Assembly: GCF_013297935.1 (NCBI RefSeq)
Contig: NZ_JAAFIX010000004.1
Location: 1-64,000 of the forward strand
Source: Rhodoferax sp.
Lineage (GTDB): Bacteria > Pseudomonadota > Gammaproteobacteria > Burkholderiales > Burkholderiaceae_C
DNA: 64,000 bases
Direction: 5' to 3'
The notes below the pieces were generated by a model that did not search any database, was not told the DNA's origin, and worked only from the letters and a program-made list of their open reading frames with translations. Shown piece after piece: positions 17,975 to 54,300 of this stretch. Positions within the stretch are counted from its first letter, which is position 1. Every line of letters starts with the position of its first letter. A program made the position numbers and the translations under genes.

Positions 17975-18053
17975 AACGATAGCGACTGCTTTGGAGCGCT
18001 GCGAAAGTCTGCTTTCAGCCTAAAGCCGCCCCATCCTCAATCGCGTACACTCC

Positions 18054-18143
18054 GCGCTGCCCGGGGTGCGCAGTGGTTGCGCTGAGATGGATTCCAAACC
18101 CGCGAACTTGATCTGGTTCATACCAGCGTAAGAAGTGCAGCGC
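18054..18143 (+). promoter_or_regulatory. TPP riboswitch (THI element)
   Basis: The conserved pieces occur in order: GGGGTGC, GCTGAGAT, ACCCGCGAACTTGATCTGG, TTCATACCAGCGTAAGAAG. The closing helix P1 is GCGCTGC (18054-18060) with GCAGCGC (18137-18143). It lies about 100 bases upstream of thiC. TPP binding should lower expression of the whole thi operon. Confidence 0.96.
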
Positions 18144-18157
18144 AGCCCACCACAGTC

Positions 18158-18230: not shown

Positions 18231-20159
<1,929 letters not shown>

Positions 20160-21447: not shown

Positions 21448-22437
21448 ATGTCCGCACCCACTAGCGACAAAGCCGCTGAGCAACGAGAAACAAAGACCCA
21501 AGGAGCGACGCCAGAGCCGCTGTCTCCAGCGCAAAAAGGTAGGGAGGCTGGCCGTTCTGCGCAGGTCAAGGAGGAGCCCGCAAAGCGGGCGGGGGACACG
21601 GAGCAGAGCGGCCAGCCTCCCAGCCGCGCCCGCCAAAGCCAAGGCCAAAGAGAGGACCCAGCCGAATGGCACATCGGTGGCCGCACCCTCACCAGCCGTT
21701 TCTTCCTGGGCACCGCCGCCTACCCCTCGCCGCAAATCCTGCAACACGCAATCCAAGCCTCCGGCGCCCAAGTCGTCACCATGGGCCTGCGCCGCCAGTT
21801 GGCTCACGGCAGCGGAGCCAGCGACTTCTTTGCACTCATTAAAGCCACCGGTGCCCACCTGCTGCCCAACACCGCCGGCTGCCATACCGCCCGCGAAGCC
21901 ATCACCCTGGCCCACATGGCCCGCGAGCTGTTTGACACGACGTGGATCAAGCTCGAAGTCGTGGGCGATGCCCACACCCTGCAGCCCGACCCCTTCGAGC
22001 TGCTGGTCGCCGCGCGGCAACTGGCCAAGGACGGGTTTGACGTGTTCCCTTACTGCATGGACGACCTGGTGAGCTGCCAACGCCTGCTGGACGCGGGCTG
22101 CAACATCCTTATGCCCTGGGGCGCACCCATCGGCTCCGGCCAGGGGCTGGTGAACCCCGGCGCGCTGCGCACCTTGCGCGCGCGACTGCCGGGCGTGCCG
22201 CTCATCGTGGACGCGGGCATCGGCTCGCCGGCCGACGCCGTGCAGGCCATGGAGCTGGGGCTGGACGCCGTGCTGCTCAACAGCGCAGTCGCCCACGCCA
22301 TTGACCCGGTGCGCATGTCGCGCGCCTTCAAGCTCGGCATCGAGTCGGGCCGCTTGGCTTATGAAGCCGGCGTCATGCCCCGCCAGGACATGGCGGTGGC
22401 ATCTACCCCGGTGACCGGTCACCCCATTTTGCTGTGA
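21448..22437 (+). CDS. thiG: Thiazole synthase with repeat-derived N-terminal extension
   Basis: A 329-residue protein that forms the thiamine thiazole from DXP, dehydroglycine and ThiS thiocarboxylate. The TIM-barrel core starts near residue 72 ([17 protein letters not shown]). The Schiff-base Lys is Lys168 ([11 protein letters not shown]); GQGLVNP and [11 protein letters not shown] are present. The family is normally about 260-270 residues, so about 65 residues are extra. These are a hydrophilic, low-complexity extension, most of it encoded by palindromic element A1. The core looks intact, so the enzyme is probably active. Confidence 0.93.
21542..21621 (+). repeat. Palindromic element A1 (core A) inside thiG
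   Basis: Left arm GGGAGGCTGGCCGTTCTGC (21542-21560) is complementary at 18 of 19 positions to the right arm ending GGCCAGCCTCCC (21603-21621). The 47-bp core (21559-21605) is identical to that in the araC gene at 32943-32989 and encodes [16 protein letters not shown] in frame. The arms differ from those of the other copy. Confidence 0.85.
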
Positions 22438-22442
22438 GTCTG

Positions 22443-22489
22443 CTATGAAAAAAGAAGCTACTTGCGCAATATCTACAAGGGCTAGAAGC
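22443..22489 (-). repeat. Family-C dispersed repeat providing the thiDE start (C4)
   Basis: CTATGAAAAAAGAAGCTACT then TGCGCAATAT and GGGCTAGAAGC. The ATG of thiDE (22445) lies inside it, and the first 15 residues of the protein are encoded by it. Confidence 0.75.
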
Positions 22490-23995
22490 ACTTTAGGCAC
22501 TGAATTTCCCTCCGTGCCCACGAGCAAACGCCCCGTGGTCTGGAGCATTGCCGGCTCCGACTCCGGCGGCGGTGCCGGCCTGCAGGCCGACCTGAAAGCG
22601 CTGCAGGCCTTTGGCGTGCACGGCTGCACGGCCGTGGCCGCCATCACTGCGCAAAACTCGGTCGCCGTGACCCAGGTGGAGCCTGTCAGCGCCGAGTTGC
22701 TGGACGCGCAGCTGGGCGCGTTGGCTCAGGACATGCCGCCCCAGGCCATCAAGACCGGCTTGCTCGGCAGTGTGGACAACCTGCGCGTGGTCTGCCGGTG
22801 GGTAGATGCCTTGCGTGCACAGGGCCACCCGGTGGCGCTGGTAGTGGACCCGGTGTTGGGCTCCACCACGGGTGCCGCCTTTGCCGACGATGCCGTGTTG
22901 CAGGCCACCATCGCCGAGCTGCTGCCGCGCGCTACCCTCATCACCCCCAACCGCGTGGAGGCGCAGCGCTTGGGGCTGGCAACGCCTGATGCCCAGCAGG
23001 CGTTGCTGGCGCGGGGTGTGTCCATCGTCATCACCGGTGGAGACGCCGCGGACGCGCAAGCCCATGACTGGCTGCAAAGCCCGCAAGCTACCGGCTGGCT
23101 GAGCTTGCCCCGTGTGGACACTGCCCACCACCACGGCACGGGTTGCACCTTTGCCTCCACGGCCGCTGCCGCGCTGGCCAGCGGCTACTGCGTGGCCGAC
23201 GCCGTGGTGCTGGCCAAGATGGCCACCGCCCACGCACTGCGCCACGCTTACGCGGCGGGGCAGGGCGCGGGGCCGGTGAACCCGCAGGCTGACTTTGCAC
23301 AGCACATTGGTAACCTGCCCGCCTTCACCCTGCCGGGCGGAAGAGTGCCGCTGCACGCGCAGCAGGTGCTGCCCTTCGCCCCGCTGAGCAACCCGGCGCT
23401 GGGCGTGTACGCGGTGGTGGACAGCGCAGTCTGGGTCCGCCGCGTGCTGGAGAGTGGTATCCGCACCGTGCAACTGCGCATCAAAGACCCCGCTGAGCCC
23501 ACGTTGGCAGCGCAGGTGCAAGAGAGCATTGCGGCCGCGCAAGCCACGCCCGGCGCGCAACTTTTCATCAATGACCACTGGCAACTTGCCCTGCAACTCG
23601 GCGCCTACGGCGTGCACCTGGGGCAAGAGGATTTGGAGCAGGTCGACCTGCAGGCCCTGCAAAGCGCCGGTGTGCGCTTAGGCCTCAGCACCCACAGCTA
23701 CTGGGAAGTCGCCCGCGCCTGGGCCCTGCGCCCCAGCTACATCGCCTGCGGCCCTACCTTCGCCACCCAGAGCAAAGACATGCCCTGGATTCCGCAGGGC
23801 CTGGACAACCTGCGTTACTGGGCCGGCGTGCTGCCGCTGCCCGTGGTGGGCATTGCCGGCATAGATGCGAGCAATGTGGCCGAGGTGGCCGCTACAGGTG
23901 CAGCCAGTGCGGCGGTGATTTCGGCGATCACCAAAGCTGCAGACCCGGAGGCGGCGTGCCGCGCGCTGTTGAGCGGGTTCAGGCCCCCGACTTAA
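22445..23995 (+). CDS. thiDE: Fused HMP-P kinase / thiamine-phosphate synthase
   Basis: A 516-residue fusion. The ThiD half (about residues 28-275) has IAGSDSGGGAGLQADLKA, VVDPVLGSTTG and the kinase anion hole HHHGTGCTFAS. The ThiE half (about 310-516) has TVQLRIKD, FINDHWQLAL, GVHLGQEDL, GLSTHSYWEVARA and VVGIAGIDASN. Together they phosphorylate HMP-P and join the pyrimidine to the thiazole phosphate. The first 20 or so residues are outside either domain and come from a family-C repeat; a start near VPTSKRPVVWSIAG would give a normal ThiD. Its 3' end overlaps the convergent protease gene by 17 bases. Confidence 0.93.
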   Translation: MKKEATCAISTRARSTLGTEFPSVPTSKRPVVWSIAGSDSGGGAGLQADLKALQAFGVHGCTAVAAITAQNSVAVTQVEPVSAELLDAQLGALAQDMPPQAIKTGLLGSVDNLRVVCRWVDALRAQGHPVALVVDPVLGSTTGAAFADDAVLQATIAELLPRATLITPNRVEAQRLGLATPDAQQALLARGVSIVITGGDAADAQAHDWLQSPQATGWLSLPRVDTAHHHGTGCTFASTAAAALASGYCVADAVVLAKMATAHALRHAYAAGQGAGPVNPQADFAQHIGNLPAFTLPGGRVPLHAQQVLPFAPLSNPALGVYAVVDSAVWVRRVLESGIRTVQLRIKDPAEPTLAAQVQESIAAAQATPGAQLFINDHWQLALQLGAYGVHLGQEDLEQVDLQALQSAGVRLGLSTHSYWEVARAWALRPSYIACGPTFATQSKDMPWIPQGLDNLRYWAGVLPLPVVGIAGIDASNVAEVAATGAASAAVISAITKAADPEAACRALLSGFRPPT

Positions 23996-25463
23996 GCGCC
24001 ATCGCCAGATAGTTCTTGGTACCCTCATGCAGCACCAAGAGCGCCACGCTGCCCTTGGCTTGCGCCAGCACTGCGCGGGCCTGCTCCACCGAGGTGATGG
24101 GGGTCTGGTTAATGGCCAGCAGGATGTCGCCGGTGGCAATGCCGGCTTGGCCGGCCTCGGGCTGAATACCTTCAATCATCAAGCCTTGGAGCACGCCCGC
24201 TGCGCGCTGCTCCACGGGCAGCAGGGGGCGCACGGCCAGTCCGATGGCAGTTAGCTTGGGGAGGGCGTTCAAGGCGGTGTCAGCGGCGGGCTTGCGTTGC
24301 TCGGGGTCGTCCATGGTGGCGCGAACTTGCAGGCGCTGGCCATTGCGCAGCACATCTACCGAGACCTGCTGGCCGGGCACGGCCATGGCCACCCACAGGG
24401 GCAGGTCGCTGGCGGACTCGATGGTGTGGCCGTCCACGGCCACGATCACATCGCCCGGTTGCAGGCCGCTCTTGGCAGCGGCACTGCCTGGCTGCACATC
24501 GGCCAGCAATGCGCCCATGGGCTTGGGCAGCTTGAAGGCATCGGCCAGCGCTTGGGTGACCTCTTGGGCCGAGACGCCCAGCACCCCGTGGGTGGCACGG
24601 CCGGTCGCCACAATTTGTCGCGCGACCGAGAGCGCCAGATCAATCGGGATGGCGAAGCTCAGGCCCTGGTAGCCGCCGCTGCGGGTGTAGATTTGCGAGT
24701 TGATACCAATGACCTCACCCCGCGCATTGAACAGCGGGCCACCCGAGTTGCCGGGGTTGATGGCGGCATCGGTCTGAATAAAGGGCACGGTGTAGTCGTC
24801 CGGCAGGGTGCGGCTCTTGGCGCTCACTACGCCGGTGGTCACGGTGTTGTCCAGCCCGAAGGGGGAGCCGATGGCCAGCACCCACTCGCCGACGTTGAGC
24901 TCCGTGGGGCTGCCTGCGGTAACAAAGGGCAGTGCAGTCGCATCGATTTTGAGCACGGCAATGTCGGTCTTGGCGTCGCTGCCCAGCAGTTTGGCCTTGA
25001 ACTCGCGGCGGTCGGTGAGTTTGACGGTGATGTCGCTCGCGTGCGCCACCACGTGGGCGTTGGTCAGCACCAGACCATCGGCACTCACCACAAAGCCGGA
25101 GCCTCTGCCGTTGACCGGAATCTGTATGCTCGCGCCGGTGGCGCCGAATTGCTCCTGGAACTTGCGCAAAAACAGCTGGGTCGGGTCTTCGCTATCCGCG
25201 CCCTTGGCATTGCCCGATGTGTCTTTGCCATCGGCGGTGACGAGCCGGGTGCCGGTGACGCTGATGTTGACGACCGCCGGGCCGAAGCGCTGCACGATCT
25301 GCGCAAAGTCGGGCGTGCCGATCTGGCGGATGGCGGTGGGCGGGTTTGCCGCAGCCTCCGGCGTGGCATGGGCGGGGGCAAAGCCCAGCAGGCTCACCAG
25401 CGCAAGCAGGGCCAAGGGTGCCGCATGGCGGCGCAGATAAACAGGGGCAAGGGGGTTCAGCAT
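23979..25463 (-). CDS. Deg/HtrA-type periplasmic serine protease
   Basis: A 494-residue protein with a signal peptide (LALLALVSLLGFAPAHA). The trypsin-like domain carries His137 (LTNAHVV), Asp167 (KTDIAVLKI) and Ser240 (INPGNSGGPLFN). Two PDZ domains follow (GVLGVSAQEVTQALADAFKL start near residue 290; the second ends with GDILLAINQTPITSVEQARAVL). It degrades or refolds damaged envelope proteins (DegP/DegQ/MucD role). It is convergent with thiDE. The start at 25463 is about 80 bases from the LiuR operator, which faces the other way. Confidence 0.92.
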   Translation of the reverse strand: MLNPLAPVYLRRHAAPLALLALVSLLGFAPAHATPEAAANPPTAIRQIGTPDFAQIVQRFGPAVVNISVTGTRLVTADGKDTSGNAKGADSEDPTQLFLRKFQEQFGATGASIQIPVNGRGSGFVVSADGLVLTNAHVVAHASDITVKLTDRREFKAKLLGSDAKTDIAVLKIDATALPFVTAGSPTELNVGEWVLAIGSPFGLDNTVTTGVVSAKSRTLPDDYTVPFIQTDAAINPGNSGGPLFNARGEVIGINSQIYTRSGGYQGLSFAIPIDLALSVARQIVATGRATHGVLGVSAQEVTQALADAFKLPKPMGALLADVQPGSAAAKSGLQPGDVIVAVDGHTIESASDLPLWVAMAVPGQQVSVDVLRNGQRLQVRATMDDPEQRKPAADTALNALPKLTAIGLAVRPLLPVEQRAAGVLQGLMIEGIQPEAGQAGIATGDILLAINQTPITSVEQARAVLAQAKGSVALLVLHEGTKNYLAMALKSGA

Positions 25464-25548
25464 GGACCCATGGTGCCACTAGGGCGTGAAGCCTTGGCGC
25501 TCTTTGGTGAAGGCCGGGTAAAGCCGGGGCGCGCATCTTCTGGCAGAA

Positions 25549-25570
25549 TTGACGTTTACGTAAACGTCAA
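25549..25570. promoter_or_regulatory. Second LiuR operator, upstream of the thiolase
   Basis: Base-for-base the same 22-bp palindrome as at 9810-9831, and one further base pair on each side also matches (25548-25571). It ends 33 bases before the thiolase ATG. It probably places the thiolase and following genes in the LiuR regulon. Confidence 0.85.
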
Positions 25571-25603
25571 TCGCGTACCACCACCAGCACAACGAGGAAG
25601 ACC

Positions 25604-26785
25604 ATGTCAGAAGCCATCGTGATCGTCAGCGCCGCCCGCACTCCCATGGGGGGCTTTCAGGGCGACTTCGCCTCGCTCGCCGCCCACGACCTGGGTGGGG
25701 CCGCCATTCAAGCTGCGGTGGAGCGCGCTGGCATCAGCCCGGAGCTGGTGACCGAGGTCATCTTCGGCAACTGCCTGATGGCGGGCCAGGGCCAGGCGCC
25801 TGCGCGCCAGGCAGCCTTCAAGGGCGGCCTGCCCAAGAGCGCGGGCGCCGTCACGCTCTCCAAAATGTGCGGCTCCGGCATGCGCGCGGCCATGTTCGCG
25901 CACGACATGTTGCGCGCCGGCAGCCACGATGTGCTCGTAGCCGGTGGCATGGAGAGCATGACCAATGCACCCCACCTCTTGCTCAAGGGCCGCAGCGGCA
26001 TCCGTATCGGGCACGATCGGGTGATGGACCACATGATGCTCGACGGCCTGGAAGACGCCTACGAGGCCGGCCGCTCCATGGGCACCTTTGGCGAAGACTG
26101 CGCTGCCAAATACAGCTTCACCCGCGAACAACAAGACAATTTCGCCACAGCCAGCGTGCAGCGTGCGCAGGCAGCTATCAAATCAGGAGCATTTGAGGCC
26201 GAAATTACGCCGGTCACCGTCAAGACCCGCGCGGGCGACGTGCAGGTCAGCATCGACGAAGGTCCCGGCAAGATCAAGCTGGACAAGATTCCCACCCTCA
26301 AGGCCGCCTTTAAGAAAGACGGCACCATCACCGCCGCCAGCAGCAGCTCCATCAATGACGGCGCAGCCGCTATGGTGCTCATGCGTGAAGGCACCGCCAA
26401 AGACCTGGGTTGCAAGCCTTTGGCCAAAATCGTGGCCCACGCCACCCATGCCCAGGAGCCCAACTGGTTTGCCACCGCCCCCGTGGGTGCCACCCAGAAG
26501 GTGTTGGCCAAAGCCGGTTGGAAAGTGGAAGACGTGGACCTGTGGGAAATTAACGAAGCCTTTGCCGTGGTGCCCATGGCGTTGATGGCCGAGCTGAATA
26601 TTCCGCACGACAAGGTGAACGTGAACGGCGGCGCCTGCGCACTGGGCCATCCCATTGGCGCGTCGGGTGCGCGCATCATGGTCACGCTCATTCACGCACT
26701 GAAGGCGCGTGGCCTTAAAAAAGGCGTGGCTACCCTGTGTATCGGGGGTGGCGAAGCCACAGCGGTGGCCCTGGAGCTGCTCTGA
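25604..26785 (+). CDS. Acetyl-CoA C-acetyltransferase (thiolase II)
   Basis: A 393-residue thiolase. The nucleophile is Cys89 (LSKMCGSGMRA); the acid/base residues lie in GGACALGHPIGASGARI (His) and ATLCIGGGEATA (Cys). It cleaves acetoacetyl-CoA, the end product of leucine breakdown after HMG-CoA lyase, which suits its LiuR operator. The ribosome site ACGAGGAAG is strong. The segment at 26169-26200 resembles a family-C repeat, but the protein there is family-normal. Confidence 0.95.
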   Translation: MSEAIVIVSAARTPMGGFQGDFASLAAHDLGGAAIQAAVERAGISPELVTEVIFGNCLMAGQGQAPARQAAFKGGLPKSAGAVTLSKMCGSGMRAAMFAHDMLRAGSHDVLVAGGMESMTNAPHLLLKGRSGIRIGHDRVMDHMMLDGLEDAYEAGRSMGTFGEDCAAKYSFTREQQDNFATASVQRAQAAIKSGAFEAEITPVTVKTRAGDVQVSIDEGPGKIKLDKIPTLKAAFKKDGTITAASSSSINDGAAAMVLMREGTAKDLGCKPLAKIVAHATHAQEPNWFATAPVGATQKVLAKAGWKVEDVDLWEINEAFAVVPMALMAELNIPHDKVNVNGGACALGHPIGASGARIMVTLIHALKARGLKKGVATLCIGGGEATAVALELL

Positions 26786-26852
26786 CCCCGCACCGCAAGG
26801 CCTAGCCCGCAGCGTCTGAAATACTACGGCCTTTGCTTGTTGCAGGACCATC

Positions 26853-27929
26853 ATGTCACCTACCCCCGAGATTTCTACCTTCTGGCGCGAGTTTGCGGCC
26901 GCGGAAGCCGCCCTCTACGCCTTGCCCTTGGGCGAGCAGGTGGAGCGTGCCAACGCGCTGCTGGCGGAGCACATCGATGGCCTGGCCCTGGAGGTTATGG
27001 GCGCGGAGGGCGATGCGGTGCTCGATTTGATCGCCACTGCGCACGGTAGCGTGGAGCTGTTTCCGCAACTCACCCAGCTTGCTGCCGCAGCGCCCGCTTT
27101 GGCGCACTTCAGGGTCAGCGCGTTCCGCACTCGCAGCGACGAGCCCGACTTTCCCATGGGCATGGACGGCTTTGAGCTGGCAAGCTCCGAGGTGCTGGTG
27201 GCCCTGCAGCCGGACAACGGCCAGATCGCCCTAGAACTGCGCTTTACCCGCGAGATGGCCCCTGAGTTTGTGGAGCACGCGCAGCAGATGAGTTTCATCA
27301 TGCTGGACCATGTGCTGGGTGAATACGACTTTGCAGTCAAGGTCGGCGCGGTGGACTTTGTGGATGGCGACGACGAGGAGCAAACGTGGACCCCGCTGCA
27401 CCGCTTGCCGGCCGTGTTTGACGCCTATTGGGCCGATGAGATGGGGCACACCGGCCTCTTTCCGGCGGGTTCCCACGCGTGGACAGCGCTGGACCTGGAA
27501 TTCGACTGCGCCGTGGATGACGAAGGCAACGATGTCGACGAAGACGACCTGCCCGATGGCGAAGATGCCAACGCGGGCGAGGGCACCGTCACGGTCAACA
27601 CCAGTGCCAACGCGGTGGCCATGCGCGCCGACCTGGTGTGGGCCTTGACCTTGGCGGCCGATGTGCCCGACGAGGCCGCGGGCGCTGCCCTGCACGACCT
27701 GCAAGTGCAGGCCGCCACCCTGTTGCAAGGGCCCCAACTGGGTATTGGCGCTTGGACGCTGGTGGGCGAAGGCCGCTACCAGGCACTGTTTTATGTGACC
27801 GACGAGGCGCTGGCCCGTGGGGCCTTGGCGCCCTTGCTCGCGCGCGCTGGGTTGCCGGCTGTCGAGGTCAAGGTGAGCTTCGACCCCGCGTGGGCGGGCT
27901 ATTTTGAATACGCGAGCTATCTCGCCTAA
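26853..27929 (+). CDS. Acidic protein of unknown function, possibly DUF695-like at the C-terminus
   Basis: A 358-residue soluble, strongly acidic protein. An Asp/Glu-rich loop occupies about residues 218-250 (DDEGNDVDEDDLPDGEDA). The C-terminal end KVSFDPAWAGYFEYASYL resembles the DPxWxxYF ending of DUF695 proteins, but that assignment is weak. No catalytic motif is recognisable. It lies between thiolase and an SDR gene, probably in the same transcript. The role is unknown. Confidence 0.6.
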   Translation: MSPTPEISTFWREFAAAEAALYALPLGEQVERANALLAEHIDGLALEVMGAEGDAVLDLIATAHGSVELFPQLTQLAAAAPALAHFRVSAFRTRSDEPDFPMGMDGFELASSEVLVALQPDNGQIALELRFTREMAPEFVEHAQQMSFIMLDHVLGEYDFAVKVGAVDFVDGDDEEQTWTPLHRLPAVFDAYWADEMGHTGLFPAGSHAWTALDLEFDCAVDDEGNDVDEDDLPDGEDANAGEGTVTVNTSANAVAMRADLVWALTLAADVPDEAAGAALHDLQVQAATLLQGPQLGIGAWTLVGEGRYQALFYVTDEALARGALAPLLARAGLPAVEVKVSFDPAWAGYFEYASYLA

Positions 27930-27950
27930 GCGCACCAAGGGCTGATCAGC

Positions 27951-28637
27951 ATGCAAACCACATTGGTAATAGGTGCCTCCCGAGGTATCGGGCTCGAAAT
28001 GGTGCAGCAGCACCTAGATGCCGGTGATCGGGTGATTGCCACCGCCCGGGACGAGGCGGGCCTGCAGCGCTTGCGCGACCTGGGGGCCCAGGCCATGAAG
28101 CTGGATGTCACTAACCCCGCCAGCGTGAGCGGTCTGAGCTGGCAGCTCGATGGCGAAAAAATCGACCTCGCCTACTACGTGGCGGGGGTGTTCAGCGCCG
28201 ACGATGCCAAGTCCCCACCCACCCGGCAGGCTTTTGACGCGATGATGCATGCCAACGTGCTGGGCGCCATGCAGGCCCTGCCCCAAGTAGCGCCGTGGGT
28301 GGAAGAGGCTGGCGGTCAGTTTGTGTTTATCACCAGCGACTTTGCGCAGATCGGCGGGGTAGAGAGCAGCCGCGCTTGGGTGTACCACGTGAGCAAGGCC
28401 GCCCTCAACATGGCCGTAGTGGCGGCGCAGCCCGACTACCCGCGAGCCCAGTTTCTGTTGATTCACCCCGGCTGGGTGCGCACTGACATGGGCACCCCTG
28501 ATGCGCCTTTGCTCCCCGAAGACAGCGTGGCCGCCATTCGCGCCACGGTTGCCGCCCGCAAAACTACGCAGGCGGCCTTTGCCTGCAGCGATGTGCCCTA
28601 CCTGCGCTGGGACGGCACTCCCTTTGCCGGCTGGTGA
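27951..28637 (+). CDS. Short-chain dehydrogenase/reductase
   Basis: A 228-residue SDR. The cofactor motif is VIGASRGIGLEM (TGxxxGxG type), with an Arg-containing loop after beta2 (ATARDE) suggesting NADP preference. The catalytic Tyr-Lys is YHVSK with Ser in FVFITSDFAQ; the structural Asn is in HANVLGAM. The end is unusually short for a classical SDR. The substrate is unknown. It sits 21 bases after the acidic unknown and 32 before the acyl-CoA dehydrogenase. Confidence 0.87.
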   Translation: MQTTLVIGASRGIGLEMVQQHLDAGDRVIATARDEAGLQRLRDLGAQAMKLDVTNPASVSGLSWQLDGEKIDLAYYVAGVFSADDAKSPPTRQAFDAMMHANVLGAMQALPQVAPWVEEAGGQFVFITSDFAQIGGVESSRAWVYHVSKAALNMAVVAAQPDYPRAQFLLIHPGWVRTDMGTPDAPLLPEDSVAAIRATVAARKTTQAAFACSDVPYLRWDGTPFAGW

Positions 28638-28669
28638 ACTGACACCACAACGACCCGAGAGAGACACCT

Positions 28670-29800
28670 ATGCTGCTGACCCAAGACCAGGAAATGATCC
28701 GCGACGCGGTGCGCGATTTCGCCCAAGCCGAGCTGTGGCCGAATGCCGCGAAGTGGGACAAAGAGCACACCTTCCCCAAAGCCGCGCACCAAGGCTTGGC
28801 CGCCCTGGGCGCCTACGGCATTTGCGTGCCCGAAGAACTTGGCGGCGCGGGGCTGGACTACGTGACCCTGGCGCTGGTGCTGGAAGAAATTGCGGCCGGC
28901 GACGGTGGCACCAGCACCGTGATCAGCGTGACCAACTGCCCGGTCAACGCCATCCTGATGAAGTTCGGCAACGCGCAGCAAAAAAAGCAGTGGCTGGAGC
29001 CGCTGGCCCAGGGCCGGATGCTGGGCGCTTTTTGCCTGACCGAGCCGCATGTGGGCAGCGATGCCTCCAGCCTGCGTACTACGGCGGTGAAAGAGTGCGA
29101 TGAGTACGTCATCAATGGCGTCAAGCAGTTCATCACCAGTGGTAAACATGGTGACGTGGCCATCGTCATCGCGGTGACTGACAAAGGCGCGGGCAAGAAG
29201 GGCATGAGCGCCTTTCTGGTGCCCACCAACGCGCCGGGCTACGTGGTCGCGCGCTTGGAAGACAAGCTGGGCCAGCACAGCAGCGACACCGCGCAAATCA
29301 ACTTCGATAACTGCCGTATTCCTGCCGAAAACTTGATCGGCAAAGAAGGCGAGGGCTACGGCATCGCACTCGGTGGCCTGGAAGGCGGGCGCATTGGCAT
29401 TGCCGCGCAAAGCGTGGGCATGGCCCGCAGCGCGTTCGACGTGGCGGTCGCCTACGCCAAAGACCGCCAGAGCTTCGGCCAGCCCATCTTCAACCACCAG
29501 GCCGTGGGTTTTCGCTTGGCCGAGTGCGCCACGCAACTTGAGGCCGCGCGCCAGCTCATCTGGCACGCTGCGGCGCTGCGCGATGCCGGTCGCCCCTGCC
29601 TGAAAGAAGCCGCCATGGCCAAACTGTTTGCCAGCGAGATGGCCGAGCGGGTGTGCAGCGCCGCCATCCAGACCCTGGGCGGCTACGGTTATGTGAGCGA
29701 CTTCCCTGTCGAGCGCATCTACCGCGACGTGCGTGTGTGCCAGATTTACGAAGGCACCAGCGACGTGCAAAAAATCATCATCCAGCGCGCGCTGGCTTGA
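28670..29800 (+). CDS. Acyl-CoA dehydrogenase (short-chain type)
   Basis: A 376-residue FAD enzyme. CLTEPHVGSDAS and FITSG form the flavin and substrate site, and the catalytic Glu is at the C-terminal position (CQIYEGTSDVQKIIIQRAL). This separates it from LiuA. Its position within the leucine cluster suggests a branched or short-chain acyl-CoA substrate. The ribosome site GAGAGAGAC precedes the ATG. The MBL gene follows after 5 bases. Confidence 0.92.
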   Translation: MLLTQDQEMIRDAVRDFAQAELWPNAAKWDKEHTFPKAAHQGLAALGAYGICVPEELGGAGLDYVTLALVLEEIAAGDGGTSTVISVTNCPVNAILMKFGNAQQKKQWLEPLAQGRMLGAFCLTEPHVGSDASSLRTTAVKECDEYVINGVKQFITSGKHGDVAIVIAVTDKGAGKKGMSAFLVPTNAPGYVVARLEDKLGQHSSDTAQINFDNCRIPAENLIGKEGEGYGIALGGLEGGRIGIAAQSVGMARSAFDVAVAYAKDRQSFGQPIFNHQAVGFRLAECATQLEAARQLIWHAAALRDAGRPCLKEAAMAKLFASEMAERVCSAAIQTLGGYGYVSDFPVERIYRDVRVCQIYEGTSDVQKIIIQRALA

Positions 29801-29805
29801 GCTCC

Positions 29806-30723
29806 ATGGCGCACGCACTGCCTCCCGGCGTCACCGTCTTCGAGCGGGGCTGGCTGTCCAGCAACAACATCCTGATCCAGGGCGAGGGCGGCACCGCGCT
29901 TATCGACAGCGGTTACTGCACCCATGCCGAGCAGACGCTGGCGCTGGTGGACTCGGCGCTGCAAGGCAGGTCCTTGGACTTGCTGCTCAACACCCATTTG
30001 CACAGCGACCATTGCGGAGGCAATGCCGCGCTCCAAGTGCGCTACCCCGAGATGGAAACGCATATTCCACCGGGGCACGCTGACTTTGTGCGCGTGTGGG
30101 ACGCCCATGCCCTGAGCTACACACCCACGGGTCAACAGTGTCCGCGCTTTCAGTTGAGTGCCACACTGCAGCCGGGCGCCGACATGCGCTTAGGCGACCT
30201 GCAGTGGCAAGTGCACGCAGCTCCCGGCCACGACCCGCACTCGGTCATCTTGTTTGAACCGGCGAGCCGCACGATGGTGTCGGCCGACGCGTTGTGGGAA
30301 AAAGGTTTTGGTGTGGTCTTCCCCGAGCTCGATGGCGACGATGCGTTCGACGAAGTGGCCGCCACGCTGGACGTGATCGAGCGGCTGAACCCCGCCACCG
30401 TCATCCCGGGGCATGGAGCGCCCTTCACGGAGGCTGCGCAGGCTATTGCCTATGCCCGCCAGCGACTGAACGGCTTTGTGCAAAACCCCACCAAGCATTT
30501 GCAGTACGCGGCCAAGGTGCTGCTCAAGTTCAAGCTGCTCGAAGCCCGCCACCTGCCTCTGCCCGCGCTCATCGCCTGGGCGCGCAATACCAGCTACTTC
30601 AGCCACACTTTCGAACAACACGTTGCCGGCGCCACCTTGGAAGAGGCTACGCAGCAACTGGTGCAGGACCTGGTGCGCTCCGGTGCTGCAAGGTTGCAAG
30701 ACGGCGTGGTGTTTGACGCCTGA
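29806..30723 (+). CDS. Metallo-beta-lactamase-fold hydrolase
   Basis: A 305-residue protein. The metal motif is NTHLHSDHCGGN (HxHxDH), with further ligands in AAPGHDPHSVI, a VSADALWEKGFG segment and IPGHGAPF. The C-terminal 80 residues are helical, as in the LACTB2-like/glyoxalase II-like group, where they may bind CoA or RNA. Being tightly linked to acyl-CoA genes suggests a thioesterase, but this is inferred. The start is taken at MAHALPPGVTVFERGW. Confidence 0.87.
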   Translation: MAHALPPGVTVFERGWLSSNNILIQGEGGTALIDSGYCTHAEQTLALVDSALQGRSLDLLLNTHLHSDHCGGNAALQVRYPEMETHIPPGHADFVRVWDAHALSYTPTGQQCPRFQLSATLQPGADMRLGDLQWQVHAAPGHDPHSVILFEPASRTMVSADALWEKGFGVVFPELDGDDAFDEVAATLDVIERLNPATVIPGHGAPFTEAAQAIAYARQRLNGFVQNPTKHLQYAAKVLLKFKLLEARHLPLPALIAWARNTSYFSHTFEQHVAGATLEEATQQLVQDLVRSGAARLQDGVVFDA

Positions 30724-30740
30724 CACTCAAGGAGACTCAC

Positions 30741-31163
30741 ATGCCGATTACCAAAAGTTCCCGCGCCCTGGTGGACGAAGCCATGGCGCAAGTCACCAGC
30801 TACAGCGTGGCCGAAGTGCAGGCCCGCTTGCACGACCCGCAGGTGCAGATCGTGGACATTCGCGATATCCGCGAGCTGAACGACGGCACCGTGGTGGGCG
30901 CCTTCCATGCGCCGCGCGGCATGCTGGAGTTTTGGGTAGACCCCGAGTCGCCGTACCACAAGCCCTTGTTTGCCGATGAGTCCAAAGAGTTCATCTTGTT
31001 TTGCGGTGCGGGTTGGCGCAGTGCGCTGGCCGCCAAGGCCTTGCAAGATATGGGCATGACCAACGTGGCCCACATCGACGGGGGCTGGGGCGAATGGGTT
31101 AAGGCCGGTGCGCCCACGGAAACCCTGGAGCAACAAAAGGCCCGCCGCCAAGCCAAGGGCTGA
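30741..31163 (+). CDS. Rhodanese-domain sulfurtransferase-like protein
   Basis: A 140-residue single rhodanese domain. The active-site loop is FCGAGWRSALAAKAL with the catalytic Cys; VQIVDIRDIRELNDGTVVGAFHAPRG is the N-terminal rhodanese signature. It is probably cytoplasmic. The ribosome site AAGGAGA is strong. The sulfur acceptor is unknown. Confidence 0.9.
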   Translation: MPITKSSRALVDEAMAQVTSYSVAEVQARLHDPQVQIVDIRDIRELNDGTVVGAFHAPRGMLEFWVDPESPYHKPLFADESKEFILFCGAGWRSALAAKALQDMGMTNVAHIDGGWGEWVKAGAPTETLEQQKARRQAKG

Positions 31164-31199
31164 AGCCGCCCGAAGCCGGCGGCCTGCCAAAGTCGAGGC

Positions 31200-31619
31200 A
31201 TGATCGAGGGCATGACGCCCTTTGTGATGACCGACGCCTGCCCTTGCGGCCGGCAACAACAGAAAAAACCCATTCCCTTCAGTCAATGCTGCGGCCGCTG
31301 GCTGGAGACCGTGTTCCCCGCGCTTGACGCCGATTGCCTGATGCGCAGCCGCTACTGCGCCTTTGTGCTGGAGCGTGCGCCCTACCTGCTCAAAACTTGG
31401 CACGCCAGCCACCGCCCCGCCAGCATTGAATTCGACCCCGGCGTCAAATGGCTGGGCTTGGAAGTGCGCAGCCACACGGTGCTAGATGCTACCCACGCAG
31501 AAGTAGAGTTCGTCGCCCGCCAGAAGCCGGTAAGTGGTCCGGCTGTGCGCCTGCATGAGCGCAGCCGCTTTGTGCTGGAGAGCGGCCACTGGCTGTATGT
31601 GGATGGAGATGCCCTGTGA
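31200..31619 (+). CDS. ychJ: YchJ-family protein (SEC-C-like)
   Basis: A 139-residue UPF0225/YchJ protein. The N-terminal zinc-binding motif ACPCGRQQQKKPIPFSQCCG and LMRSRYCAFV are diagnostic, as is the C-terminal VEFVARQ. A second in-frame ATG at 31212 is equally possible as a start. Its function is unknown; only one SEC-C-like motif is present. The stop overlaps the GTG of the next gene. Confidence 0.85.
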   Translation: MIEGMTPFVMTDACPCGRQQQKKPIPFSQCCGRWLETVFPALDADCLMRSRYCAFVLERAPYLLKTWHASHRPASIEFDPGVKWLGLEVRSHTVLDATHAEVEFVARQKPVSGPAVRLHERSRFVLESGHWLYVDGDAL

Positions 31620-32269
31620 AATTTGAAGCCATATTGTTTGACTGCGACGGCGTGCTGGTGGACAGCGAGCCGATTACCAATGGCGTGCTGCGCGACATGC
31701 TGGCCGAGCAGGGCTGGCACATGAGTGTGCAGGCGTGTATGGATTTTTTTGTGGGCAAGGCTGTGATCGACGAGCGCGCCCGCATCGAGGCCGAAACCGG
31801 CAAACCACTCACACCGGAGTGGATGGCCGATTTTCGCACCCGCCGCAATGCCGCGCTCATGGCGCAGGTGCAGGCCATACCGCAAGCGCTGGAGGCGGTA
31901 GCCGCCATCCATGCCGGTTTCGGCGGCCGGATCGCCTGCGCCTCGGGCGCCGACCTGCCCAAGGTGCTGATGCAAATGGGCAAAACCGGCCTGCTGCCGT
32001 ACTTTGAAGGCCGGGTGTTCAGCGGCCACGATTTCCCCCGCTCCAAACCCCACCCCGACGTGTACCTGGCTGCTGCGGCCGCCTTGGGCGCGGACCCCAA
32101 GCGCTGCGCAGTGGTCGAAGACACGGTAACCGGCGTCACCGCCGGCGTGGCGGCCGGTGCCACCGTGTTTGGCTATGCGCCGCAAGGCGATGGGCGCGCC
32201 TTGCTGGATACCGGGGCGGTGCAGGTGTTTCACACCATGGGCGCGCTGCCCGGCCTACTCATCGGCTGA
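31616..32269 (+). CDS. HAD-superfamily phosphatase (beta-phosphoglucomutase/phosphoglycolate phosphatase-like)
   Basis: A 217-residue HAD-IA enzyme with GTG start overlapping ychJ. Motif I is LFDCDGVLVDSEP, motif II RIACASGAD, motif III SKPHPDVYLAAAAALG and motif IV CAVVEDTVTGVTAGVAAG. The cap is helical. The substrate is probably a small sugar phosphate. Its end overlaps the convergent araC gene by 15 bases. Confidence 0.9.
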   Translation: MKFEAILFDCDGVLVDSEPITNGVLRDMLAEQGWHMSVQACMDFFVGKAVIDERARIEAETGKPLTPEWMADFRTRRNAALMAQVQAIPQALEAVAAIHAGFGGRIACASGADLPKVLMQMGKTGLLPYFEGRVFSGHDFPRSKPHPDVYLAAAAALGADPKRCAVVEDTVTGVTAGVAAGATVFGYAPQGDGRALLDTGAVQVFHTMGALPGLLIG

Positions 32270-33418
32270 TCGCACCGGGCCGATCGGGGCGGGCGAGGCC
32301 TTGCGCCGGAACTCGGCTGGCGTTTGCCCGGTCCAGCCCTTGAAGGCGCGGATAAAACTTTTCTCATTCTGAAAACCCGCGGCCTCTGCGACTTGCTTGA
32401 CCGGTTTGCGGCTGCGTAAGAGCAGCTCGGTGGCGCGGTGGTGGCGCACCTCGTCTTTGAGGGCTTGCAGGGTGGTGCCTTCTTCGTGGAGCTGGCGGTG
32501 CAGAGTGCGGGGGGACACGTTCAGCAGACGGGCCAGTGCCTCGGCGCTGTGGGTGTCTCGGGGCTGCTGCACGAGCAGCTGCCGCACCTGTTGCACCAGC
32601 AACCGGTCGCGCCGGTAGTGCAACACGGTCAGGGGCAGGGCGTTTTGCAGCATGTGTTGCAGCGCCTTTTCATCGCGCCGCAGCGGGAGTTGTAGGTACT
32701 TTGCATCAAAAAAGATAGCGCCCTGCGCTTGCAGGAAGCGGGCTGGGCCGGGAAAAAGCACTGCATACGCCTCTGCGTGAGGTGGCGGCTCAAACGGGAA
32801 GTGGGTTTGCAACAGGGTGATGCGTGAGTCAATGAGCCACGAGGCCACGCCCAGCACATTGCGTAGCACGGAGACCATGCATAACTCGCGGAACGGCTCG
32901 GGGATGCCCGTGTCTGTGGGCAGGACAAGGGCGTGGGGCCTTTGCTCCGTGTCCCCCGCCCGCTTTGCGGGCTCCTCCTTGACCTGCGCAAAGCCCCCAC
33001 GCCCTTGTCCTGCTGTGGCCGAGTTCTCTGTGAGCGTGATGCCGGCTACATCGCCAGCGACGCTCAGCGTGAGGGTGATGTCGGGTGCAATCAGGCCGTG
33101 GTGGCGGCACCAGCGGCTCAGGGCTACATAGAGGGTGGGCGCCGAAATCGAGGCGCGCGCCAGCATGCCGTAGCTACCCCAGGGCAGGCGGCGGCTGAAC
33201 CAGCCTAGGGCTTCGTCGTCCAGCTCGCGCATGGCGGCTCCTGACAGGCGCTCCATCTGCCCGGCGGTAATACGGGCATTGGCCTGCTGTAACTGCTCTG
33301 GCGCAATCTGCGCCTGTGCCAGAGCGCCAGACGGGTCTTTGCCGTAGTGCGCATAGGCCTGCACCATCGCTCGTGCAAAGGCCATGGGGGTGAGGGCGGG
33401 AGCGGTGGTGGGTGGCAT
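32255..33418 (-). CDS. AraC-family regulator carrying a repeat-derived insertion
   Basis: A 387-residue regulator. The N-terminal effector domain resembles the arabinose-binding-like domain of the OruR/ArgR-type AraC group; the C-terminal HTH pair is NVSPRTLHRQLHEEGTTLQ and VAEAAGFQNEKSFIRAFKGWTGQTPAEFR. The start is taken at MPPTTAPALTP; 13 codons further upstream are open. Residues about 140-170 ([31 protein letters not shown]) are encoded by palindromic element A2 and interrupt the effector domain. It is divergent from liuB and may regulate it. Confidence 0.88.
   Translation of the reverse strand: MPPTTAPALTPMAFARAMVQAYAHYGKDPSGALAQAQIAPEQLQQANARITAGQMERLSGAAMRELDDEALGWFSRRLPWGSYGMLARASISAPTLYVALSRWCRHHGLIAPDITLTLSVAGDVAGITLTENSATAGQGRGGFAQVKEEPAKRAGDTEQRPHALVLPTDTGIPEPFRELCMVSVLRNVLGVASWLIDSRITLLQTHFPFEPPPHAEAYAVLFPGPARFLQAQGAIFFDAKYLQLPLRRDEKALQHMLQNALPLTVLHYRRDRLLVQQVRQLLVQQPRDTHSAEALARLLNVSPRTLHRQLHEEGTTLQALKDEVRHHRATELLLRSRKPVKQVAEAAGFQNEKSFIRAFKGWTGQTPAEFRRKASPAPIGPVRSADE
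32921..33012 (-). repeat. Palindromic element A2 (core A) inside the araC gene
   Basis: Arms of 25 bp: CAGGACAAGGGCGTGGGG plus CCTTTGC (32921-32945) against its complement at 32988-33012, matching at 24 of 25. The core (32943-32989) is the exact reverse complement of the thiG core, 47 of 47. On the coding strand it is read in the same direction and frame as in thiG. Confidence 0.85.
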
Positions 33419-33478
33419 GTCTGCAGTGTGCCAAAAAATGTGGTGCTTATGGCGCAATTTGCAACCTCACAAGGGGCT

Positions 33479-51302: not shown

Positions 51303-51370
51303 AGCCACAGCCCCCCGCGGGTCGGGGAAAGGTCCCTAGAATGTCTCTCCCCACCTAGAGAGCATTCACC

Positions 51371-54300
51371 ATGACCCAGGGCACCATCCGCATCCGCGGA
51401 GCGCGACAGCACAACCTCAAGAACCTTGATCTGGACATCCGCACGGGTGAGTTAACGGTGGTCACCGGGCCCAGCGGTTCGGGCAAGTCCAGCCTGGTGT
51501 TTGACACGCTGTATGCCGAAGGCCAGCGCCGTTATGTAGAAACCTTCAGCGCCTACGCGCGCCAGTTTTTAGACCGTATGGACAAGCCCGCGGTCGACAA
51601 GGTGGAAGGTGTGCCGCCCGCCATCGCCATCGACCAGACCAACCCGGTGCGCTCCAGCCGCTCCACCGTGGGCACGATGACGGAGCTTAACGACCACCTC
51701 AAGCTCTTGTTCTCCCGCGCCGGCAGCTTGTTTGACCGCGACACCGCGCTGCCTGTGCAGCACGACACCCCCGAGACGATCTACAGCAGTCTGCTGCAGC
51801 GCGCTGCGCTGGAGGGCAACCCGCGCTTGGTGCTTACCTTTCCCGTGGAGCTGCCCGGCAACGCCACACCCGACGAGGTTACCCAGTGGCTGAGCGCCAG
51901 CGGCTTTACCCGGGTGCAGGCAGAGCGCGAGGTGGCCCGGCCTGTGGCCGCAGAGCCCACCAAAACTGGCGCTGCCAAAATCAGCAAAAAGGCGGCGCTC
52001 CCCGCATCGAAGACGGTGAAGGTCCTGGACGTAGTGGCGGACCGCTTCCGCATCGACGGGGTTGAAAAAGCCCGGGTGCTGGAAGCGATTGAGACTGCCC
52101 TCAAGCGCGGGGGCGGTCGTTTGAATGTTTATGTGTCAAAAGAGCCTCTGGCACAGGTAGATGTTGCGCCAGTAGCTCCTGAAACGATAGCAAATGCTGC
52201 GCCGGAGATCTGGCGCTTTTCCACCGGGCTGCATTGCCCGCAGAGTGACATTCGGTACACCGACCCGATCGCGTCGATGTTCAGCTTCAACTCGGCCGTG
52301 GGCGCCTGCGACGCTTGCAGGGGTTTCGGTCGGGTGGTGGGCGTGGACTACGGGCTGGTGATTCCCAACGACAAGCTCACGCTGCGCGCCGGTGCGGTCA
52401 AGCCCATGCAGACACCCGCCTGGCAGGAATGCCAGGACGACCTGATGCGCCACGCCGAGGCCAGCGGCATTCCGCGTGACACGCCCTGGTACAAGCTGAC
52501 GCAAGAGCAAAAGCACTGGGTGCTCAAGGGTTCGCCCAACTGGAATGGCAAGTGGAACCAGCATTGGTTCGGCGTGGACCGTTTCTTTGAGTACCTGGAG
52601 ACCAAGGCGTACAAGATGCACATTCGCGTGCTCTTGTCCAAGTACCGCAGCTACACCACCTGCCCGAGTTGCAATGGCTCGCGCCTGAAGACCGAGAGTT
52701 TGCTCTGGCGTATTGGCACCAAAGCCCAGGCCGACATGGCGCTGGACCCGGCCAAGCGCTTCATGCCCACCGGCGTGAAGTGGTCGCGGGAGCAGTTGGA
52801 GGCATTGCCGGGCCTGTCGCTGCACGACTTTATGCTCATGCCTTTGGATCGGCTTAAGCGGTTTTTTGATGCCTTGCAGTCTGATTTGGGCATATTGGCG
52901 GGGGCGGAGTCCGGGGTGCCGGCAGAGGCCTCATCAACTCGCTTCGCGAGTAGCAAATCGGCCTCTTCCGGCACCCCGGACTCCGCTTCGCGTCCGGAAG
53001 ATATCGCGCCGAGCATCCCAGCCGCAGGCAGGGGTGTGCAGGGGGCCGATTTTGCAGTTGCGCAGCAAATGCATGAGGCACCCGGCGTACCCCTGCCTTC
53101 GGCCCCATCGGAGAAAACTGCCAACGCACCCACTGCGTCTGAAGCCGAATTCAAGACCCTCAAGCTCTTGTTCGAAGAAGTGGGCACCCGCCTCAAGTAC
53201 CTGTGCGACGTGGGCATTGGCTACCTCACACTAGACCGCCAGAGCCGCACGCTCAGTGGTGGCGAGGTGCAGCGCATCAACCTCACCACGGCGCTGGGTA
53301 CCTCGCTGGTGAACACCCTGTTTGTGCTGGACGAGCCCAGCATCGGGCTGCACCCGCGGGACATGAACCGCATCATCGTGGCCATGCAGCGCCTGCGCGA
53401 TGCAGGGAACACGCTGGTGGTGGTGGAGCACGACCCCGCGGTAATGCTGGCCGCCGACCGCATGATCGACATGGGTCCCGGCCCGGGCGAGAAGGGCGGC
53501 AGCATTGTGTTTGACGGCACGACCGATGCCCTCAAGAGTGCCGATACTTTGACCGGCGCATACCTGGGCGGCCGCAAGCAAGTGGGCATGGGCTTTAAGC
53601 GCATGGTCACCGCCAACCACCCGCGCCTGGTTCTGGAGGGTGTGACCGAGCACAACCTGCAAAACGTGTCGGTCGAGATTCCGCTGCAGCGCCTGGTGTG
53701 TGTAACCGGTGTCTCGGGCTCCGGCAAGTCCACGCTGATTCAGGACGTGCTGGCTCCTGCGCTCTTGCGCCACTTTGGCAAAGCCACCGAAACCCCCGGC
53801 GCTCACACGCACCTGCTGGGTGCGGAGCAACTTAGCGACATGGTGTTTGTGGACCAGTCGCCCATCGGCAAAACCGCCCGCTCCAACCCGGTGAGCTATG
53901 TGGGCGCATGGGATGCAATCCGTGAGTTGTTCGCGGGCGCTGCCTTGTCCAAGGAGCGCAGCTACACCGCCAGCAAGTTCAGCTTCAACAGCGGTGACGG
54001 GCGCTGCCCGACCTGCGGTGGCTCGGGCTTTGAGCATGTGGAAATGCAGTTTTTGAGCGACGTGTATTTGCGCTGCCCAGACTGCGATGGCAAGCGTTAC
54101 CGTCCCGAAATTCTGGAAGTGACGATTGAGCGCAAGGGCCGTAACGTCAATGTGGCCGATGTGCTGGACCTGACCGTCAGCGAAGCGGCTGATTTGTTCA
54201 GCGCGGATCGCGATGTGATCCGAGTGCTGCAACCCATTGTGGATGTGGGGCTGGAGTATGTGAAGCTGGGCCAGCCCGTGCCCACGCTGTCGGGTGGTGA

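What the first reader, a model, noticed from the sequence alone, without database searches (positions are those of the whole stretch)
21542..33012. Identical 47-bp core A in two unrelated genes, each with its own private inverted-repeat arms
thiG (21559-21605) and a minus-strand araC gene (32943-32989) share a 47-bp core at 47 of 47 bases. In both genes the core is read in the same direction and frame and encodes [16 protein letters not shown]. Outside the core, each copy has long self-complementary arms (18 of 19 in thiG, 24 of 25 in araC), and the two arm sequences are unrelated. Ordinary insertion elements have conserved ends; here the loop is conserved and the stem is locus-specific. This looks like a mobile or copied unit that acquires or creates an inverted duplication of local sequence. 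I know Rickettsia palindromic elements as in-frame gene-embedded repeats, but not with private arms.
Basis: partly seen in the sequence, partly recalled or inferred. Interest (0 to 1): 0.85.

Follow-up and report, generated by a model that had tools for sequence, protein, structure and literature searches.

The report
Hairpin repeat with changing stems
The sequence shared by two unrelated genes is the conserved centre of a roughly 100-base hairpin repeat found in many members of this bacterial family; its stems differ from place to place yet keep pairing, its centre occurs in both orientations at the same sites, and genes carry it in frame, but what moves or maintains it is unknown.

Summary
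In detail: two identical 47-bp cores, each in frame and flanked by its own complementary arms. They are two of 27 copies of a ~100-bp hairpin repeat in this genome, 11 judged to lie inside genes. Model matches occur in 86 of 200 sampled family genomes.

The arms are not copies of local DNA: arms share a family consensus, empty sites lack them, and one site bears different arms in different species. The stem covaries strongly (77 representatives). The most widely conserved part is a purine-rich internal loop, AGGTMAAGGRGGA / GGRGGACA, kept in two other families around unrelated tip stems.

At orthologous sites the core is conserved (97%), flanks less (86%) and arms least (77%), with 22.7 of 24 arm pairs formed. 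The core lies in opposite orientations in 4 of 28 comparisons, one of them a replacement by another element. G·T mismatches outnumber A·C on the core strand even in copies antisense to their gene.

Mover and function are unknown. The published Betaproteobacterial repeat BRE may be the same family; this could not be tested.

The parts
21532..21632 (+). Element copy in thiG (whole 101-position model match)
   Evidence: R1 covariance model 94.2 bits, E 1.5e-19; the copy was in the model's alignment, so it matches by construction
21559..21605 (+). Conserved core in thiG (internal loop AGGTCAAGGAGGA / GGGGGACA plus apical stem GCCCGC-AAA-GCGGGC)
21542..21558 (+). Left arm in thiG
21606..21621 (+). 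Right arm in thiG (complement of the left arm; the core's last A also pairs)
21448..22437 (+). Host gene thiG; element in the N-terminal extension ahead of the ThiG domain (residues 76-321)
32916..33016 (-). Element copy in the araC-type gene (whole model match)
   Evidence: R1 103.3 bits, E 1.2e-21; also in the model's alignment
32943..32989 (-). Conserved core in the araC-type gene
32920..32942 (-). 3' arm (gene sense) in the araC-type gene
32990..33012 (-). 5' arm (gene sense) in the araC-type gene
32255..33457 (-). Host gene, AraC-type regulator; element after residue 133, where the best Arabinose_bd stretch ends, and ahead of the HTH
   Evidence: empty orthologues

Best explanation
It is a dispersed, structured hairpin repeat of about 100 bp. 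SHOWN: an outer stem of about 24 bp that covaries; a widely conserved purine-rich internal loop (AGGTMAAGGRGGA on one side, GGRGGACA on the other); a variable tip stem; copies alone or as inverted doublets; in genes, in-frame inserts without stops; at orthologous sites a conserved core, diverging but still complementary arms, and cores in both orientations. INFERRED: selection keeps the core strand able to fold (strand-specific G.T excess). INFERRED, less sure: besides ordinary compensatory change, polymerase template switching between the arms sometimes copies one arm onto the other and flips the spacer. INFERRED, weakest: the folded core strand with its internal loop is what a trans-acting factor recognises (an unidentified single-strand recombinase or transposase, or an RNA-binding protein if the element is transcribed).
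For: Copies: 27 in the own genome (29 rows, 2 of them the opposite strand of other hits); 86 of 200 family genomes, own genome included, weaker hits not inspected. Arms: median 24 bp versus 9 for swapped partners. Covariation: 95.3% of cells paired, 25 of 33 pairs with two-sided changes, 428 such cells versus 105 shuffled and at most 112 slid. Internal loop: exact motif in 12 of 399 genomes of the order (3 of own family, 8 of one other, 1 of a third), 0 for the reversed control, with quite different tip stems. In place: 28 comparisons over 16 loci give flank 85.8%, core 97.3%, arms 77.2%, 22.7 of 24 pairs kept, wobble included. Opposite orientation at one site: downstream of an L33-like gene, plus in 3, minus in 4, doublet in 1 of 8 relatives, with arm identity 0.81-0.83 across orientations for L293 and L295 against L294 and L297, where unrelated loci give 0.57 on average and 0.79 at the 95th percentile. 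Strand rule: G.T 216 to A.C 45 over 155 copies; at gene-embedded sites 70 to 6 in sense copies (n=47) and 15 to 1 in antisense copies (n=10, four sites). Arm copying: mixed-arm copies such as L214 at thiG (17 of 24 paired, right arm like the own genome's); in cleaned orthologue sets with arm identity at least 0.70, two-sided Watson-Crick changes are 90 double transversions to 92 double transitions, and transversions cannot pass through wobble. Abstracts seen: template switching homogenises inverted-repeat arms and inverts the spacer (PMC8604942) and can maintain stems (PMC8794818).
Against: In the closest orthologue pairs (arm identity at least 0.85, 21 pairs) changes are 58 one-sided against 3 double transitions and 1 double transversion, so arms mostly change one side at a time; each pair has two transversion partners and one transition partner, so per target transitions are still about twice as common. 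Of the 4 opposite-orientation cases, L171/L291 is not a flip: a remnant of the old arm lies beside a new element. The other three have arm identities of 0.79, 0.73 and 0.71, not beyond the 95th percentile of unrelated loci (0.79). Comparisons are not phylogenetically independent. Core conservation is partly ascertainment, since copies were found by the core. No target duplication and no mover were found.
Confidence: 0.55

Rival explanations
1. The unit creates an inverted duplication of local host sequence at each insertion.
For: Arms of thiG and araC differ, and some copies share little with the family arm (L003, L073, one copy in L127).
Against: Empty araC orthologues have 0-12 bp between anchors (14 of 14); the fdhD empty site lacks both arms; family arm consensus; different arms at one site in related species.
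Confidence: 0.05
2. Turnover: preferred sites lose and regain whole elements, or a new element lands in an old one, and this, not evolution in place, gives private arms, both orientations and core identity.
For: L291 carries a new element beside the remnant arm of the old one; same sites with different arms and both orientations; lone-arm remnant L322 and absences L318, L321, L308.
Against: Arms drift gradually in many orthologues (identity 0.88-0.98 in 9 of 28 comparisons); opposite cores between similar arms after the L33-like gene.
Confidence: 0.28
3. RNA-level element: the core strand is transcribed and bound as RNA, and selection on that RNA keeps stem and loop.
For: Wobble-type tolerance on the core strand; covariation; the region of the bprJ small RNAs of Bordetella contains a BRE, a possible relative (PMC3110155, section 14 read).
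Against: The asymmetry persists where the host mRNA is the other strand (15 to 1), so antisense transcripts would be needed; no Rfam family reaches its cut-off; host genes are unrelated.
Confidence: 0.25
4. REPIN-like element mobilised by a RAYT (Y1) transposase acting on a single strand.
For: Inverted doublets in fixed order (31 of 32 listed pairs minus-plus, one plus-plus); strand-specific folding; one Y1 transposase gene in the genome.
Against: That gene is near-universal in the family (188 of 200) and not associated: elements in 81 of 188 genomes with it and 5 of 12 without. No model hit lies near it. Units are about 100 bp and 11 of 27 copies are in genes.
Confidence: 0.15

Closest known systems
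Beta-proteobacterial repeat element, BRE (PMC3110155; section 14 read)
   Same: About 90 bp or 40-60 bp partial copies, 69% GC, in Comamonadaceae including Rhodoferax and Polaromonas, usually intergenic, some inside genes, more than one per locus, suspected mobile. The window copies are 69-71% GC.
   Different: Described as tandem with no or few bases between repeats; here mostly inverted doublets with 40 bp or more between. The section does not mention private arms, inversion or an internal-loop rule. Its sequence is not in the text held, so identity is untested.
Rickettsia palindromic elements (RPE; passages of PMC2229807)
   Same: 105-146 bp, long stem-loop, present in protein-coding genes (in-frame nature partly recalled).
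   Different: Here the stem is variable and the inside conserved, and inverted doublets occur; other bacteria. No RPE sequence was compared.
REPINs (PMC3116915, abstract)
   Same: Inverted doublets of palindromic units, predicted hairpin in single strand, dispersed, non-autonomous.
   Different: Units about 100 bp rather than short REPs, many in genes, no RAYT link found.
Coding palindromes of Nematomorpha mitochondria (PMC6649704, abstract)
   Same: Perfect inverted repeats inside coding DNA.
   Different: The abstract describes no conserved dispersed core.

Membership tests
BRE (Betaproteobacterial repeat element) | Sequence identity to the published BRE | not testable with these tools
   Sequence only in a figure and supplement; supplements not available
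BRE (Betaproteobacterial repeat element) | 75-91 bp, GC about 69%, Comamonadaceae, some inside genes | tested here: inconclusive
   96 bp insert at fdhD, GC 69-71%, Rhodoferax and relatives, 11 of 27 in genes: compatible, not specific
BRE (Betaproteobacterial repeat element) | Tandem arrays with no or few bases between repeats | tested here: not met
   Of 32 listed close pairs 31 are inverted, 1 direct. BRE arrays are reported only for some loci, so this is not decisive
REPIN with RAYT | Inverted doublet of palindromic units | tested here: met
   but in the own genome 19 of 27 copies are single
REPIN with RAYT | Linked to or co-distributed with its own RAYT | tested here: not met
   81 of 188 with, 5 of 12 without; no copy near the Y1 gene
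REPIN with RAYT | Extragenic | tested here: not met
   11 of 27 copies in genes
Rickettsia palindromic element | In-frame palindromic insert in unrelated genes | tested here: met
   thiG, araC-type, hrpA (two), mutL, fdhD, cobB, mpl, an error-prone polymerase, a GNAT and a sensor kinase; araC inserts are multiples of 3
Rickettsia palindromic element | Sequence family restricted to Rickettsia | not tested
   No RPE sequence was fetched; the taxa differ
MITE of a DDE transposon | Conserved terminal repeats and target duplication | tested here: inconclusive
   Ends are the variable part; no clear duplication at the fdhD or araC sites, judged by eye

The most novel reading that the evidence does not exclude
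A new design of dispersed element: its identity lies in an internal loop between two free-to-vary stems, so that it survives in any gene, in either orientation and in several frames, while template switching keeps rewriting its stems and flipping its centre. Each copy would be kept in place for a function of the folded core strand (single-strand DNA or its own RNA), independent of the host gene. A second, unrelated core with the same build in one uvrA-like gene suggests that the design arose more than once.
Probability: 0.3. Interest if true: 0.82.

Novelty: new variant of a known kind. Interest (0 to 1): 0.6.

Why it matters
Stems are thought to evolve by slow compensatory change or by template switching. 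Here many orthologous hairpins per genome, several in coding DNA and with a fixed internal mark that shows orientation, could let the two be told apart in living bacteria. It also raises why copies in unrelated genes keep a loop and a strand-specific fold that the host protein does not need, and it accounts for odd in-frame inserts in housekeeping genes of Rhodoferax and kin.

Tried and rejected
Not phage or plasmid borne as far as searched: no match in INPHARED or PLSDB at E 0.01, no exact match in viral contigs. RAYT as mover: no association. Rfam: only 5S rRNA and a TPP riboswitch reach their cut-offs in the window; the best sub-threshold hit on the thiG element is an animal microRNA family at 24.7 bits against a cut-off of 90, taken as chance. 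Local inverted duplication: rejected (see rivals). My first arm-length script used a register one base off and gave near-zero arms; corrected. My first gene-context script was strict and labelled 106 of 155 copies as not genic; the own-genome count uses flank codon scores, where L158, L173 and L178 have an open frame downstream only and were counted as between genes, while thiG was counted as genic on its conserved in-frame start region. In one search, 7 of 8 copies in one antisense frame carry GTAAA, which avoids a TGA stop, against 9 of 33 in the main sense frame. The grouping joined some intergenic copies through neighbouring elements (its first group, for one), so the change counts (158 double transversions, 127 double transitions, 281 and 192 one-sided changes to or from wobble and mismatch) are superseded by cleaned sets. 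The left-flank piece of L158 itself held the neighbouring element, so its short extra hits were ignored. In one search the chimeric L214, the degraded L220 and some group members were left out: 47 sense and 10 antisense copies were counted. Literature: searches showed no description of this element beyond the possible BRE; most subscription journals are not held.
Full report
Check. The two cores are identical over 47 bases and in the stated frame and direction. With their arms they fold far better than shuffles (-63.7 and -71.1 kcal/mol). None is expected by chance in the window.

Family. A core search with up to 3 mismatches found 11 copies in the own genome, or 15 when two tip bases were left free. 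In one search, 18 of 41 genomes have a match, all of the same genus (18 of 25, own included; up to 31 matches), and 0 of 16 genomes of other genera. From these loci 167 matches gave 160 distinct copies, 155 with enough flank to study.

Arms. In the right register arms have a median of 24 bp, with 90% of positions Watson-Crick paired; swapping right arms between loci drops the median to 9. Indels are rare (6 gap cells). One copy from each of 25 groups plus 52 ungrouped copies gave 77 sequences. The stem covaries on 25 of 33 pairs and 428 cells, against a shuffled mean of 105 and at most 112 in slid controls. So stem letters are free and pairing is not. Arms also carry a family consensus that fades about 27 bases from the core.

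What is conserved. The covariance model found 29 rows in the own genome; two are the opposite strand of other hits, leaving 27 copies. Three have a shorter tip stem (L170, L173, L175). In two other families of the order, tips are mostly longer and unrelated in sequence, but AGGTMAAGGRGGA and GGRGGACA flank them exactly: 12 of 399 genomes, none for the pattern read backwards; only 3 of the 12 own-family genomes in that sample have it. With the model, 10 of 250 genomes of the order match at E 1e-6. In 262 elements selected by this loop, its two variable bases are A..G in 253, G..A in 6, A..A in 2 and G..G in 1. The widely conserved unit is thus an internal loop between two variable stems, not a 47-bp sequence as such.

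Organisation. In the own genome 11 copies lie in ten genes: thiG, araC-type, hrpA (two), mutL, a sensor kinase, a GNAT, fdhD, an error-prone polymerase, cobB and mpl (the second hrpA copy, L163, was not in the family scan and rests on the shared frame in L095). Sixteen were judged to lie between genes, eight of them as four doublets. Of 32 close pairs listed in three outputs, 31 are minus-plus and 1 plus-plus. Four doublets of one genome share the arm types of both units, so there the doublet was the copied unit.

Empty sites. Of 33 araC loci examined, 3 lacked an anchor; 14 are empty, with 0-12 bp between anchors; 16 carry the element: eleven in plus, four in minus orientation, and one with two opposed elements in frame (L243). 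Among these L003 is the same copy as L228, and L137 reads the same as L238. At thiG, 14 of 23 loci carry an intact element, one a degraded one (L220) and eight none recognisable. In one search, 30 loci from eight sites were examined: fdhD in one relative lacks 96 bp, cobB in another lacks 141, one intergenic copy is absent in seven of seven relatives, one locus keeps a lone arm (L322), and one (L316) could not be aligned.

Evolution in place. Over 16 loci and 28 comparisons with two relatives, flanks are 85.8% identical, cores 97.3% (tip triplet left out) and arms 77.2%, with 22.7 of 24 pairs formed in the relative, wobble included. Most partners there had been found by their core, which favours conserved cores. 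The flank-only search avoids that: in the 20 elements it reached, the 21 loop positions show 13 differences from consensus out of 420, by my count; the worst are L298 (3) and L320 (2).

Orientation. The core is opposite in 4 of 28 comparisons. One, L171/L291, is a replacement: a remnant of the old arm stands beside a new element. The other three have equal spacing to the flanks but arm identities (0.79, 0.73, 0.71) that unrelated loci can reach (mean 0.57, 95th percentile 0.79). The best case for flipping is the copy after an L33-like gene (my reading of its sequence, from no call): plus in three, minus in four, a doublet in one of eight relatives, with arm identity 0.81-0.83 across orientations for L293 and L295 against L294 and L297, 0.60-0.79 for the other eight cross pairs.

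How arms stay paired. In cleaned orthologue sets, pairs with arm identity of at least 0.70 (88 pairs) show 385 one-sided changes, 92 double transitions and 90 double transversions; at 0.85 and above (21 pairs) 58, 3 and 1. So most changes begin on one side. Double transversions cannot pass through wobble and are common at larger distance, and mixed-arm copies exist: L214 at thiG (17 of 24 paired), L080 (14) and L096 (16), while L299 still pairs 19 of 24. This suits template switching as a helper (PMC8604942, PMC8794818; abstracts read) but does not prove it. Selection is needed too: G.T exceeds A.C 216 to 45 on the core strand, and 426 to 123 in a wider, redundant set of 259.

Which strand. 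At gene-embedded sites the G.T excess stays on the core strand whether the gene reads it (70 to 6, 47 copies) or its complement (15 to 1, 10 copies at four sites). Host-mRNA folding therefore does not explain it; single-strand DNA or an own transcript would.

Known kinds. It works like a REPIN or a Rickettsia palindromic element, but fails the RAYT association and the extragenic rule for the first, and was not compared in sequence with the second. The nearest published thing is BRE (PMC3110155, section 14 read in full); taxa, size, GC and partial 40-60 bp copies fit, tandem spacing does not, and sequence could not be compared. I put about even odds on BRE being this family. If so, the repeat is known and what is new is its build and behaviour.

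Noticed in passing
window 52929-52960 (+), 53047-53078 (-), 54738-54769 (+), 56496-56527 (+), 56752-56783 (-): A second, unrelated core (CCTCATSMAYTYGCTNYGCRASTRSMAAATCG) occurs five times inside one giant uvrA-like open frame, each with its own complementary arms of about 18-28 bp. With up to 3 mismatches it was found nowhere else in the own genome, and in 5 of 25 genomes searched.
   Followed up: partly
window 51359-57907 (+): Single 2,181-residue open frame matching UvrA in five stretches, about twice the length of the UvrA models.
   Followed up: no
window 18052-18152 (+): TPP riboswitch ahead of the frame at 18246 (thiC by my reading) and the element-bearing thiG.
   Followed up: no
L184:1126-1893 (-), G000 C23:302435-303121: One Y1 transposase gene of RAYT look (recalled). 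Relatives are in 188 of 200 family genomes, one match each except two in G167: looks vertically kept.
   Followed up: partly
L301, L303, L304, L309, L306, L311 at the L173 site: Where the own genome has an element, six of seven relatives have a different GC-rich, palindrome-rich stretch of similar sequence to each other; the seventh (L308) has neither.
   Followed up: no
L322, L170 site: A lone left arm remains where core and right arm are gone, a likely decay product.
   Followed up: no
L291, L171 site: A new element stands beside the remnant arm of an older one at the same place.
   Followed up: partly
L243 (araC orthologue): Two opposed elements in frame inside one gene, adding about 222 bp.
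   Followed up: no
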